Source of the DNA: Bacteroidales bacterium
GTDB lineage: Bacteria > Bacteroidota > Bacteroidia > Bacteroidales > P3
Reading direction: 5' to 3'
Length of the DNA: 64,000 nucleotides
Assembly: GCA_022482545.1 (NCBI GenBank)
Contig: JAKVOZ010000002.1
Span: 1-64,000 of the forward strand
Part shown: positions 59,421-63,667 of the stretch, piece by piece
Layout: the number at the start of each line of letters is the position of its first letter
Numbering within the stretch: position 1 is the first letter of the stretch
The notes under the pieces: generated by a model
Seen by the model: only the letters and a program-made list of their open reading frames with translations
Told to the model about the DNA's origin: nothing
The model's database searches: none
Translations under genes and position numbers: made by a program

Positions 59421-59460
59421 AAATAGAGATAGTGATTTTGTTCATTATCTCTATTTTTTT
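59421..59460 (+). terminator. Intrinsic terminator of glyA
   Basis: AAATAGAGATA pairs with TATCTCTATTT over an 18-nt loop and is followed by a T run. Confidence 0.85.
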
Positions 59461-59604
59461 ACTTGTAATATTAAACAATTATAATCAATTATTTAAAATA
59501 TTTTAATTTTAAGTATAAACCTGTTATTCAATTTATTATATATACAAAATAAAATAATTAAAAAATAAATGCAAAAAAAAATAGGAGAAATAAAATATAT
59601 ATTA

Positions 59605-59612
59605 TATTTTTG
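59605..59612 (+). promoter_or_regulatory. -7 box inside cassette copy A
   Basis: TATTTTTG lies 43 bp before the small open frame. In copy B one T is missing and the match is lost. Confidence 0.5.
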
Positions 59613-59654
59613 CCATCAAATTTAATTAATAGAATTAATTTTTATTTTTTAGTT

Positions 59655-59798
59655 ATGAAACATAATAATTATATATTATCAAATGATTGGTTTTGCAATA
59701 AGGAAAGTGTATTGCAAAAGAATTATTATGTCAGTGCTTTAATTACAAGATATACCTCAGAGTATATTTGGATAATTGGTAAAACTAATTTAGGGTAG
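59655..59798 (+). CDS. Possible 47-residue small protein in the duplicated cassette
   Basis: The open frame from ATG 59655 encodes 47 residues (MKHNNYILSNDWFCNKES at the N-terminus, ending IIGKTNLG). It has a -7 box 43 bp upstream. In the second cassette (62622) the matching frame has one inserted base and breaks after about 22 residues, so coding is not conserved between copies. I recognise no family. It could be a leader peptide, a relic, or chance. Confidence 0.35.
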   Translation: MKHNNYILSNDWFCNKESVLQKNYYVSALITRYTSEYIWIIGKTNLG

Positions 59799-60017
59799 TT
59801 TTGCTATCACTTATTTAGTTTCATATTCTTTAAGTGATAGCGGTATTTAATTAAATACTATTATGTTATAAAGTAAATGCGAGCCAATTATATTCTATAT
59901 ATTTATTTATAATAAAGAATAAATTTTTTTGAATAAAGGGTGTAATCAATGCTTTAAATAAAATCCACGAAAAGCATTTATTTTTAATAAGGATAAATTT
60001 TTATTTAATAAATTATA

Positions 60018-61226
60018 ATGATAAAAATAAAAAAGTGTTTTGATAAAACAAAACAAATAACATTAAAATTAACTATTATATTAGTTATTGTATTTTTAGG
60101 AATATTTGTAGATAGTTGTCAAAATAAAGATGATGATAATAATTTTATTTATCAAAAAGAAGCTAAATTGCCAAATGTATCTACAAAGATATTTGCAAAA
60201 GAATTAGCATATGCAATACAAAAAAATCCAAAGATTGTTAAAACTATTAATAATTCTGTAGATATTATTTCATCTTATGGTTTAGATGAAAATCTTACAG
60301 TATTTGATATATTAAATACTGATAAGTCAGTATTTTTTAGTAAAAATAATTTTGGAGATTTAAAGAGTGTGTTTAGTACTGAAGAATTAAAAAATTTAGG
60401 TTTTTCTTCTGATAATTATTACGGAAATCTAAATATATATTGGGGATATCATGATGATTGGGATGGCAAAACAAATCCTATTGTTTGTTATATAGATAAT
60501 ACAACAACATCTACGATAACGAAAGGATTTAAAATAGAAAAAGATAAATTGGTAGATGTTGAAATATCAGAAGAAGAATTTGATTCAGAAAAGCAACCAA
60601 TTATAGTTGTAAATGTAAATGATTTGAATTATGCAGTATATCCAGATTTTAAAAATGGTATAAGAATAAAAGATGGGGTAGATTGGAATGAATGGATTGA
60701 TAATGGAGATAACGATGCTAATGAAAATTCTGTTTATAATAATCCTAAAAAAATATATAAAGCTGGTTATACTTATTTACAAAGTGGTGGACATCAATAT
60801 GATTATTGGTGGGCAGGTGGAAGTGAATTTTATATTGAAGCTACTTTTGCAACTACAGAAACTACTGGAACATATGCAGAACATTCTTGCCCATTTACAA
60901 GAAAACAAATAAAACATAAAGTAAAAAAATCTTGTGGATTTTCAATTTTACATTCGGATTGGAAAACTAATTTTCTTAATGTTGATTTTAGATTATTTGA
61001 GTCTGATGGTGGATCAAAACAACCTTTTACTGTATCATTAAATATATTAAATAAAGTTTCTTTCAATGTGTCTGTACCTAAACGTAGTTATGATGATTTG
61101 GTTGGACAAGTTAATGTAAGTAGAGATTCTTTTATGGCTTCATATGATAATGGAGATAAATTGTATCAACTTGGAGATTGTACCTTAACAACAGATCTAA
61201 AAATATATAATAGACCAACTAAATAA
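60018..61226 (+). CDS. Large lipoprotein, function unknown
   Basis: A 402-residue protein. An N-terminal basic stretch is followed by a hydrophobic segment (LTIILVIVFLGIFV) and a lipobox-like DSC. The first part of the mature protein is helical (FAKELAYAIQKNPKIVKTI); the second part is beta-rich and aromatic (DYWWAGGSEFYIEATF) with a late DLKIYNRPTK end. I do not recognise a family. It is very AT-rich, more than the housekeeping genes. It lies 40 bp after cassette copy A and 12 bp before a barrel gene, so lipoprotein and barrel may work together at the outer membrane. Confidence 0.72.
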   Translation: MIKIKKCFDKTKQITLKLTIILVIVFLGIFVDSCQNKDDDNNFIYQKEAKLPNVSTKIFAKELAYAIQKNPKIVKTINNSVDIISSYGLDENLTVFDILNTDKSVFFSKNNFGDLKSVFSTEELKNLGFSSDNYYGNLNIYWGYHDDWDGKTNPIVCYIDNTTTSTITKGFKIEKDKLVDVEISEEEFDSEKQPIIVVNVNDLNYAVYPDFKNGIRIKDGVDWNEWIDNGDNDANENSVYNNPKKIYKAGYTYLQSGGHQYDYWWAGGSEFYIEATFATTETTGTYAEHSCPFTRKQIKHKVKKSCGFSILHSDWKTNFLNVDFRLFESDGGSKQPFTVSLNILNKVSFNVSVPKRSYDDLVGQVNVSRDSFMASYDNGDKLYQLGDCTLTTDLKIYNRPTK

Positions 61227-61238
61227 AATATAAAAAAA

Positions 61239-61994
61239 ATGAATAGATTAACAAGAAATTTTTTAATTGTATTTTTAGTTTTAATTATATCAATTTCAGT
61301 TAAAGGCCAAGAAAATCCTTTTAATCAACGTATTAAAAAAAATCATTTTGGGTTAGGTGTCTCTACTGCTATTTTTGATGGTAATACTGTGTTTAATGGT
61401 TTTACGGCTAAAACTATTTATTTTATAAATGCAAATAGAAGTATGAATCTTGATTTGCATTCAACGACTATGTATGGTATTTATTTTAAATACCAATATG
61501 ATTTGACAAATTATTTTTCTTTTGCATTAAAACTAAAATATAATCAGAGAAGTTTAGATTTTAATTATTATTTTAATACAAATCAAGGTATAATAAGTAT
61601 TAATAAATATAATGTAGATTTGAATAATATTCAAATACCAATTATTGCAAAATTTAAATGTTTAAATATAGATGGTTTGTGTTTATGGGGAGATTTAGGT
61701 TTTGGTGCTGATTTTAATATTAGTAAGAATACAGATATTTATAGTATTAGAGCAAGAGATGAAAATGGAGTTTTTAAAACTTATGATTTTAAATTAGATG
61801 TTAATAATGATGTTACTCCATTTCTTTATTTCGGTGTAACAAATGATTATAATATTACACAAAAAAGCAAATTAGAAACCACTTTATCTTATACATTGAA
61901 TTTACGAAATAATTATCAATATAAATCCACAGATGTTATAGGAGAGAAGTTTTCTCAAAATGTTTTAGAAATAGGAATTGCTTATTTATTTTGA
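61239..61994 (+). CDS. Outer-membrane beta-barrel protein (porin family-like)
   Basis: A 251-residue protein with a signal peptide ending near SVKGQ and alternating strands (SFALKLKYNQRSLDFNYYF, LCLWGDLGFGADFNI, FLYFGVTNDYNI), ending ...EIGIAYLF with a terminal aromatic residue typical of barrels. The role is unknown. It lies 12 bp after the lipoprotein gene, probably cotranscribed. Confidence 0.75.
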   Translation: MNRLTRNFLIVFLVLIISISVKGQENPFNQRIKKNHFGLGVSTAIFDGNTVFNGFTAKTIYFINANRSMNLDLHSTTMYGIYFKYQYDLTNYFSFALKLKYNQRSLDFNYYFNTNQGIISINKYNVDLNNIQIPIIAKFKCLNIDGLCLWGDLGFGADFNISKNTDIYSIRARDENGVFKTYDFKLDVNNDVTPFLYFGVTNDYNITQKSKLETTLSYTLNLRNNYQYKSTDVIGEKFSQNVLEIGIAYLF

Positions 61995-62447
61995 TGTAAT
62001 AATTTAGTATTTATATAACGGTAAAGAGTAATCTTTCTCTTTTGTTTTATTTATATATCATTATAAATTAATAATGTGAATTAAAGTGAGTCTAATATAA
62101 GAAAATGTTTGTAAGTAATTGATAAACATATTTAATGTTTTCTATTAAAGAGTATTAATCCCTCATATATTAAAAGGTTAATAGTGATTATTGAAAAAAT
62201 AGAGAAATAATTTTAACTATAAAATCACAAAACATTGGTTGTTGATATGTGTTATATATAGAATTCATGTTAATAGTGGACAATAAACAGAAGAAAAGTA
62301 GATTAACTGTATTTTAAAACAAAATATGACATTTTAAGTATCAATATTAAACTCATTAAATTCGTTTTAATAACTCTTTATTTTAATTTATTAATAATAA
62401 TAAATAATCAATTTATAATAAAAGACTTCAAAATATTATATAGTTTC
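61995..62447. other. Gene-free AT-rich spacer
   Basis: No open frame of note. The only recognisable elements are the 36-bp repeat at 62232-62267 and a short dispersed-type word (TTCGTTTTAATAACTCTTTA) near 62360. A weak AAGAG/CTCTT symmetry follows the barrel stop. Confidence 0.55.
62232..62267. repeat. 36-bp direct repeat, left copy
   Basis: ACATTGGTTGTTGATATGTG, continuing to GAATTCA, recurs at 63634-63667 with one TA unit fewer. The pair brackets cassette copy B and the barrel gene at 62990. Confidence 0.85.
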
Positions 62448-62948
62448 TATAATCAATTATTTAAAATATTTTAATTTTAAGTATAAACTTGTTATTCAAT
62501 TTATTATATATACAAAATAAAATAATTAAAAAAATAAATGCGAAAAAATTAGGAGAAATAAAATATATATTATATTTTGTCATTAAATTTAATAAATAGA
62601 ATTAATTTTTATTTTTTAGTTATGAAACCTAATAATTATATATTATCAAATGATATGTTTTGCAATAAGGAAAGTGTATTGCACAAAGAATTATTATGTC
62701 AGTGCTTTAATTACAAGATATACCTCAGAGTATATTTGGATAATTGGTAAAACTAATTTAGGGTAGTTCTGCTATTACTTATTTAGTTTCATATTCTTTA
62801 AGTGATAGCAGTATTTAATTAAATACTATTGTATTATAAAATAAAATACGAGCCAATTATATTCTATATATTTATTTTCTAATAAAGAATAATTTTTTTT
62901 GAACAAAGGGTGTAATCAATGCTTTTAATAAAATTCACGAAAAGCATT
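62448..62948. repeat. 500-bp duplicated upstream cassette, copy B
   Basis: The partner of 59480-59978. The small open frame (ATG 62622) is frameshifted near 62681 and ends at 62750. The hairpin (62771-62809) keeps its pairing, because the one arm change (C to T) leaves a G-U pair. The palindrome is extended to AGTATTTAATTAAATACT. It ends 42 bp before the barrel gene at 62990. Confidence 0.9.
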
Positions 62949-62989: not shown

Positions 62990-63613
62990 ATGAAAAAAGT
63001 ATTTTTAAGCGTATTGCTTTTATTTAGTTTTGTTATTATTGCTAATTCACAAGAAACAAAAAATACACATTTTGTTATAGATTGGAACAACGGTTTTTCT
63101 AAATTTTGTAATTATTCAGGATTATCAAATATTAATGATAATAAAGAAAGTCATATTGGTAGATTTATGCAAGCAGATGTAGGAATAATTAGGCATGAAA
63201 AAGGAGGAATATTTCTTGATATGGAAATAAATGATATTAATATGAGATATAATGAAATGTTTAATGAAAAATGTATCTTGGGATATGGTGGGGTATCTTT
63301 AGCTTTCATAGGAAAAGTATCAGATAAGTTTTCAATTGAGCCGAGATTTGGATGTGGAATTTTATCTTTATCAAATAAAATATATTATAATGATAAAGAT
63401 TATACAATGAATAGAATTGGTAACGGATGTAAATTTTCATTATTATTTTCATATAAATTATTAGAACATTTATACTGTGGAGTTAATGGAGAGTTCTTTT
63501 CTGGACATATTAAAAATAAAGATTTACCTGATGAATTAAAAACATATTCTATGAATCATAATAATGATATATATAGTGCTAATTTATCAATAGGTTTTAG
63601 AGCAATATTTTAA
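62990..63613 (+). CDS. Outer-membrane beta-barrel protein, function unknown
   Basis: A 207-residue protein with a signal peptide (MKKVFLSVLLLFSFVIIANSQ) and a barrel-like strand pattern (GYGGVSLAFIGKVSDKFSIE, FSLLFSYKLLEHLYCGVNGE, SANLSIGFRAIF), ending in Phe. No family assigned. The gene is preceded by cassette copy B at almost the same distance as the lipoprotein gene at 60018, suggesting shared control. Confidence 0.72.
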   Translation: MKKVFLSVLLLFSFVIIANSQETKNTHFVIDWNNGFSKFCNYSGLSNINDNKESHIGRFMQADVGIIRHEKGGIFLDMEINDINMRYNEMFNEKCILGYGGVSLAFIGKVSDKFSIEPRFGCGILSLSNKIYYNDKDYTMNRIGNGCKFSLLFSYKLLEHLYCGVNGEFFSGHIKNKDLPDELKTYSMNHNNDIYSANLSIGFRAIF

Positions 63614-63633
63614 TAAGACTATAAACGTATAAT

Positions 63634-63667
63634 ACATTGGTTGTTGATATGTGTTATATAGAATTCA
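63634..63667. repeat. 36-bp direct repeat, right copy
   Basis: Matches 62232-62267 except for a 2-bp TA difference. It starts 20 bp after the barrel stop. Confidence 0.85.

What the first reader, a model, noticed from the sequence alone, without database searches (positions are those of the whole stretch)
59480..62948. A 500-bp non-coding cassette is duplicated in front of two unrelated secreted-protein genes
59480-59978 and 62448-62948 are near-identical over their full length, with few substitutions and indels. Each ends about 40 bp before a start codon (60018 and 62990), yet the two genes encode unrelated proteins, a large lipoprotein and a small barrel. A copied upstream region carrying promoter, hairpin and palindromes points to shared regulation, such as a structured leader, a switchable promoter or a mobile regulatory cassette.
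Basis: seen in the sequence. Interest (0 to 1): 0.62.

Follow-up and report, generated by a model that had tools for sequence, protein, structure and literature searches.

The report
Conserved leader-peptide switch before exported-protein genes
The duplicated 500-bp block carries a tiny gene whose protein ends in a conserved motif (about YASEYIWLIGKN) right in front of an RNA hairpin, and the same arrangement sits in many copies ahead of genes for exported proteins in Bacteroidales bacteria, which suggests an undescribed family of switches that control those genes as the ribosome reads the leader.

Summary
The duplication is real: 59480-59978 and 62448-62948 are 95% identical, the only two full copies in the genome. 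The block is not non-coding. Its core is a promoter-like box, a 47-codon leader ORF (59655-59798) and a hairpin starting where the ORF stops. The C-terminal motif, Y-[AS]-S-[DE]-x-I-[WF]-x-[IL]-G-K-N, recurs at nine places in this genome and about 40 including relatives, and is conserved as protein (Ser by TCN and AGY). The 5' arm of a sequence-variable hairpin usually begins 10-18 nt after the motif. All 39 copies with a readable next gene precede an exported protein (lipoproteins, signal-peptide proteins, NVEALA-like peptides, double-glycine peptides). A shorter core, I-[FW]-x-[IL]-[GC]-K-N-[KN]-F, extends the family across Bacteroidales, up to 11 hits per genome; there 24 of 34 leaders carry (AG)n, poly-C or similar repeats, mostly between a start codon and the motif, so the motif could slip in and out of frame. 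Best reading: a leader-peptide attenuator in which a ribosome pausing on the motif holds the hairpin open. Stalling and direction are inferred; the hairpins lack U-tracts, so they are not ordinary terminators. No paper found describes the motif.

The parts
59480..59978 (+). Copy A of the duplicated cassette
   Evidence: 95% identical to copy B over full length
59605..59612 (+). Promoter-like -7 box TATTTTTG (Bacteroidetes TAnnTTTG type), 50 nt before the leader ATG
   Evidence: same box at a similar place in most copies; consensus match only
59655..59798 (+). Leader ORF A, MKHNNYILSNDWFCNKESVLQKNYYVSALITRYTSEYIWIIGKTNLG
59661..59730 (+). Nested helices inside the leader: 59661-59670 with 59721-59730, and 59691-59699 with 59711-59719
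   Evidence: read from the sequence; pairing kept by changes on both sides in copies D and E (sequences); folds significantly in D and E but not in A or C
59751..59786 (+). Conserved motif codons YTSEYIWIIGKT
59797..59847 (+). Hairpin after the motif (arms 59797-59813 and 59831-59847)
   Evidence: fold of the leader z -3.7
59843..59858 (.). Palindrome GTATTTAATTAAATAC overlapping the end of the hairpin
   Evidence: sequence
60018..61226 (+). 402-aa lipoprotein gene downstream of A
61239..61994 (+). 251-aa outer-membrane barrel gene (OMP_b-brl_2)
62448..62948 (+). Copy B of the cassette; its -7 box has lost a base and its first ATG (62622) is out of frame with the motif
62650..62766 (+). Possible leader ORF B from an internal ATG in frame with the motif
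   Evidence: inference
62719..62754 (+). Motif codons of copy B
62765..62815 (+). Hairpin of copy B (arms 62765-62781 and 62799-62815); the three stem differences from A all keep pairing
62990..63613 (+). 207-aa signal-peptide protein gene downstream of B

Best explanation
The duplicated block is a leader-peptide attenuator. Transcription starts at the TAnnTTTG promoter, and the mRNA opens with a short ORF whose nascent peptide ends in Y-[AS]-S-[DE]-x-I-[WF]-x-[IL]-G-K-N. While the last motif codons are in the ribosome, its leading edge lies at the foot of a hairpin whose 5' arm begins about 10-18 nt further on. I infer that the nascent motif makes the ribosome pause or arrest there, probably depending on a signal, and that the parked ribosome keeps the hairpin from folding and so sets expression of the exported protein encoded about 85-250 nt downstream. 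The same unit, copied and diverged, controls a dispersed set of exported proteins. Shown: the leader ORF, protein-level conservation of the motif, the hairpin and its near-fixed spacing, the exported downstream genes, many copies per genome. Inferred: stalling, the direction of control (pause = ON preferred), and the level of control (transcript elongation by another route such as Rho, mRNA stability, or translation, since U-tracts are lacking). Unknown: the signal.
For: Leader ORFs in A, C and D align at protein level with YxSEYIWxIGKxxL intact. A profile from only these three found more copies in relatives, and a 19-aa profile from 30 sequences then found copies not used to build it, with the same anatomy (G189, G172, G176:C9, G009, G205). 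Pattern search: 18 hits against 0 reversed-control hits in 190 genomes. Codon use: Ser by AGY and TCN, Leu by CTN and TTR; pairwise differences by codon position 2369/1489/4565. Hairpin: mean fold z of the 90 nt after the motif -3.06 (25 of 36 below -2) against -0.20 for a stretch further downstream (2 of 35); 5' arm starts at +10 to +18 in 29 of 34 copies with a good stem. Downstream genes: 39 of 39 show export signals (35 N-terminal hydrophobic signals, one of them judged by eye, and 4 double-glycine leaders) against 17 of 48 window genes by the same simple rule; they include a TIGR04149 rSAM-modified RiPP, a Bacteriocin_IIc-like peptide and an NVEALA-like peptide. A promoter box lies shortly before the leader ATG in most copies.
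Against: No experiment shows stalling or regulation. The hairpins have no U-tract (2.2 T in 8 nt, 2.65 expected) and the terminator scan finds none there, so simple intrinsic-terminator attenuation does not fit. In B the original ATG is out of frame with the motif and the -7 box is changed, so B may be altered or dead. Some copies have no significant hairpin (for example G006_C55, G002_C53, G021_C93, Cd6_431; the stem search finds none in G006_C26, G002_C64a and G197_C57). The leader stop lies anywhere from +9 to +126 nt after the motif, so in some copies a ribosome that does not pause would also cross the hairpin.
Confidence: 0.6

Rival explanations
1. The small ORF encodes a free-standing small protein family; the hairpin is only the 3' end of its own transcript and the downstream gene is expressed separately.
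For: Protein-level conservation of the motif; the ORF has its own promoter-like box.
Against: Only about 12-15 residues are conserved, the rest and the length vary freely; the stop can lie 3 to 42 codons after the motif; the hairpins are not terminators; the ORF always sits 85-250 nt before an exported gene on the same strand.
Confidence: 0.13
2. The cassette is a structured non-coding RNA leader (riboswitch-like); the ORF is incidental.
For: Strong folding and compensatory changes in two helices upstream of the motif among copies A, C, D and E.
Against: No Rfam match. The conserved stretch varies at third codon positions with Ser switching between TCN and AGY, which an RNA constraint would not give; hairpin sequences are unrelated between copies.
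Confidence: 0.1
3. Local duplication or gene conversion of a promoter region without regulatory meaning.
For: Copies A and B are only 3 kb apart and 95% identical over 500 bp; B looks partly decayed.
Against: The same core stands before unrelated exported genes on other contigs and in other genomes with the motif and hairpin position kept. It explains how A and B arose, not what the unit is.
Confidence: 0.07
4. Mobile regulatory cassette or invertible promoter.
For: Copies at several sites.
Against: No terminal inverted repeats or flanking inverted repeats at the unit's ends, only two full-length copies, and other copies diverged to the motif alone.
Confidence: 0.03

Closest known systems
Streptococcus gallolyticus pil1 leader peptide, phase-variable attenuation-like control (PMC3894217)
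   Same: Leader ORF upstream of surface genes; a ribosome on the leader opens a hairpin; in the wider Bacteroidales family simple repeats lie in the leader, as the GCAGA repeats do there.
   Different: There the hairpin is a transcription terminator, only leader length matters, no conserved peptide motif, one locus. Here there is a conserved motif at a near-fixed distance from the hairpin, no U-tract, and many loci per genome. The window copies have no such repeat.
[quoted passage not shown]
   Same: Short upstream ORF with a conserved C-terminal motif beside an mRNA stem-loop that a stalled ribosome would keep open; CliM's KYxIW motif also holds I-W.
   Different: Those lie upstream of secA, secDF or yidC; SecM, MifM and CliM carry a signal or membrane segment. 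Here the downstream genes are exported cargo, the motif differs, N-termini are variable and often not hydrophobic, and copies are many.
Small-molecule-responsive leader peptides (TnaC, Erm leaders; from general knowledge)
   Same: Short nascent motif plus downstream RNA structure.
   Different: Downstream genes here are not catabolic or resistance genes; no ligand is suggested.
Short ORFs in long 5' UTRs of Bacteroides thetaiotaomicron (PMC7366714)
   Same: sORFs reminiscent of leader peptides are reported in a Bacteroidales 5' UTR survey.
   Different: In the passages read, no motif, family or link to exported genes is described.

Membership tests
Regulatory translation-arrest leader peptides (general kind) | short ORF upstream of the regulated gene, after a promoter | tested here: met
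   (co-transcription itself not shown)
Regulatory translation-arrest leader peptides (general kind) | C-terminal motif conserved as amino acids | tested here: met
Regulatory translation-arrest leader peptides (general kind) | mRNA structure placed where a stalled ribosome would affect it | tested here: met
Regulatory translation-arrest leader peptides (general kind) | ribosome stalls at the motif | not testable with these tools
   needs toeprinting or ribosome profiling
Sec/YidC monitoring substrates | downstream gene is secA, secDF or yidC | tested here: not met
   downstream genes are lipoproteins, secreted proteins, RiPP and NVEALA-like peptides
Sec/YidC monitoring substrates | N-terminal signal or membrane segment in the leader | tested here: not met
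   by inspection absent in copies A, C, D and others, present-looking in F-H, G197, G021
Phase-variable leader attenuators (S. gallolyticus pil1 type) | frame-changing simple repeats in the leader | tested here: not met
   not in the leader ORFs of the window copies; present in 24 of 34 leaders of distant relatives
Phase-variable leader attenuators (S. gallolyticus pil1 type) | hairpin is an intrinsic terminator | tested here: not met
   no U-tract
Known structured RNA leader (Rfam) | match to a covariance model | tested here: not met
Mobile cassette / MITE | terminal inverted repeats and many full-length copies | tested here: not met

The most novel reading that the evidence does not exclude
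An undescribed, Bacteroidales-wide family of arrest-type leader peptides (core I-[FW]-x-[IL]-[GC]-K-N-[KN]-F beside a hairpin) forms multi-copy regulons for exported proteins and secreted peptides. In several lineages it is phase-variable, because (AG)n, poly-C or CATA repeats inside the leader move the arrest motif in and out of frame.
Probability: 0.5. Interest if true: 0.87.

Novelty: new variant of a known kind. Interest (0 to 1): 0.72.

Why it matters
The well-known arrest peptides guard one operon each. Here one short motif appears to be reused as a plug-in controller in front of many unrelated exported proteins (up to 11 pattern hits in one genome), including likely RiPP and bacteriocin-like peptides, in Bacteroidales, where little is known about leader regulation. 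The repeat-bearing versions would add frame slippage of an arrest motif as a way to switch surface and secreted proteins. The motif also gives a simple way to find such genes and a ready substrate for testing nascent-chain stalling on Bacteroidota ribosomes.

Tried and rejected
Rfam search of the window, and at relaxed threshold for the cassette: no family. Pfam on leader A: none. The search for related loci with the three-sequence profile in genome and viral collections: no confirmed relative; a 47-aa query with a 12-aa core is too short for its tblastn check, so degenerate DNA patterns were used instead. Of the 23 pattern stretches in 84,980 species, the Bacillus-group hits (a glycine-rich protein with ...YASEDISVIGKN...), the Lachnospiraceae hit and the Acidobacteriota hit are judged chance by inspection (two of the Bacillus-group hits not inspected); the rest are Bacteroidales/Bacteroidota MAGs. 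The strict motif is absent from viral contigs; three viral hits of the looser core lack the anatomy. Outside the order: 8 hits against 3 control hits in 137 genomes, close to chance. Programmed -1 frameshifting at AAA-AAY plus hairpin was considered and dropped: AAG-AAT and AAA-ACT also occur, and the conservation lies in the peptide upstream. Intrinsic termination rejected. Looser-core hits with TGA or TGG in the G/C codon position were treated as noise. Two weak protein hits inside about 200-aa frames in genus g3 were set aside as chance.

Full report
Observation. The two 500-bp copies are real: 59480-59978 and 62448-62948, 95% identical, the only full-length pair in the 1.88-Mb genome. Copy A starts just after an intrinsic-terminator-like site at 59421-59456 that follows the 58081-59361 gene. 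Each copy ends about 40 bp before a start codon, and the two downstream proteins are unrelated. A third, partial copy (87%, query positions 81-315) lies on contig C22, also in front of a lipoprotein gene.

The conserved core is a leader ORF. In A, C (contig C22) and a diverged copy D (contig C13) the region after a TAnnTTTG box encodes 47, 48 and 54 aa that align as ...YxSEYIWxIGKxxL. A profile of these three found further copies in the same genome (on C11) and in related genomes. A degenerate pattern for the 12-codon motif gave 18 hits and no reversed-control hit in 190 family genomes, and 23 stretches in a scan of 84,980 species, all Bacteroidales/Bacteroidota apart from hits judged to be chance. 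Over 37 distinct motif sequences most variation sits at third codon positions, and Ser, Leu and Ile use several codons, so selection acts on the peptide. The search pattern fixes some bases, but not the third positions of most codons or the AGY/TCN choice. A 19-aa profile then found copies not used to build it, with the same anatomy.

Anatomy across 40 copies. A promoter-like box lies shortly before the ATG in most copies. The ORF is 30 to over 100 codons with an unconserved N-terminus. After the motif comes a hairpin whose sequence is not conserved but whose position is: the 5' arm starts 10-18 nt after the last motif codon in 29 of 34 copies with a good stem, median 13.5. The 90 nt after the motif fold far better than dinucleotide shuffles (mean z -3.06), whereas a later stretch does not (-0.20). 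By general knowledge of ribosome footprints, a ribosome with the last motif codons in its P site would have its leading edge near this point. Between A and B all three stem substitutions keep pairing (arms). The stems are not followed by U-tracts.

What follows. In 39 of 39 copies with a readable next gene the product looks exported: 35 with an N-terminal hydrophobic signal (many lipoproteins; one judged by eye, with its start picked by hand) and 4 with double-glycine leaders, against 17 of 48 genes of the window by the same simple rule (three of the 17 belong to this finding). Families include a TIGR04149 rSAM-modified RiPP, a Bacteriocin_IIc-like peptide, an NVEALA-like peptide and a redoxin-like lipoprotein (the bacteriocin and NVEALA matches lie below the curated cut-offs).

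The wider family. Weak profile hits showed that I-[FW]-x-[IL]-[GC]-K-N-[NKD]-[FL] is the inner core. A pattern for it gave 126 hits against 34 control hits in 247 Bacteroidales genomes, with sets of 11, 7, 5 and 5 in single genomes (totals counted by hand from its listing). The fetched loci of those sets mostly show the same leader, hairpin and exported-gene layout; a few hits look like chance. Outside the order the pattern is near chance. In these lineages 24 of 34 leaders hold a simple repeat ((AG)n, poly-C, CATA, TA), while 83.5 kb of flanking sequence holds none. The repeat classes were chosen after seeing the leaders, so the contrast, not the exact figure, is what counts. In most cases a start codon lies upstream of the repeat and the motif downstream. 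In genome G333 some copies are in frame (C77, C140, C14) and others would come into frame by adding or removing one or two units (C5, C23, C30, C74, C145). The leader ORFs of the window copies have no such repeat. These are assemblies, so variation within a population is not shown.

Mechanism. The layout resembles arrest peptides next to a stem-loop (PMC10987492, PMC13183943) and the S. gallolyticus pil1 leader, where a ribosome on the leader opens a hairpin and repeats change the leader's length (PMC3894217). I propose that the nascent motif pauses the ribosome at the foot of the hairpin and that this sets expression of the exported gene. Pausing, direction and signal are inferred. Because U-tracts are missing, control may work through Rho, mRNA stability or translation rather than an intrinsic terminator. 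Copy B has a 1-nt insertion that puts its original ATG out of frame; an internal ATG (62650) is in frame with the motif, and its -7 box is altered, so B may behave differently from A.

Known or new. It is not a Sec/YidC monitor (downstream genes differ), not an Rfam element, and not a mobile element by the tests done. Full-text searches for five spellings of the motif found nothing relevant; subscription journals and preprints were mostly not searched. I rate it a new variant of a known kind (regulatory leader peptides), with unusual features: one motif reused across many exported-protein genes, and repeat-bearing relatives.

Noticed in passing
L207-L246 (genomes G333, G273, G438, G255, G427, G274 and others), 300 nt upstream of the motif: Long pure (AG)n, poly-C, CATA or TA repeats inside leader regions, most between an upstream start codon and the conserved motif; 24 of 34 leaders against none in 83.5 kb of flanks. 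Looks like phase variation of a leader peptide.
   Followed up: partly
window 62216-62258 and 63618-63660: A 43-nt near repeat (88%...ACATTGGTTGTTGATATGTGTTATATA...) downstream of the barrel gene and of the 207-aa gene (D10).
   Followed up: no
window 59661-59730 and the same region of copies C, D and E: Two nested helices inside the leader ORF upstream of the motif, kept by changes on both sides in copies D and E relative to A; not tested statistically as a set.
   Followed up: partly
L070 (G002:C53) and L073 (G006:C55), just after the motif: Runs of 7 and 9 G directly after the motif in orthologous leaders of two related genomes, i.e. length-variable.
   Followed up: no
L087, L088, L090, L101, L103, L128 (MAG Cd354_bin6): Six copies of the leader in one MAG, each before a small NVEALA-like exported peptide gene.
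   Followed up: partly
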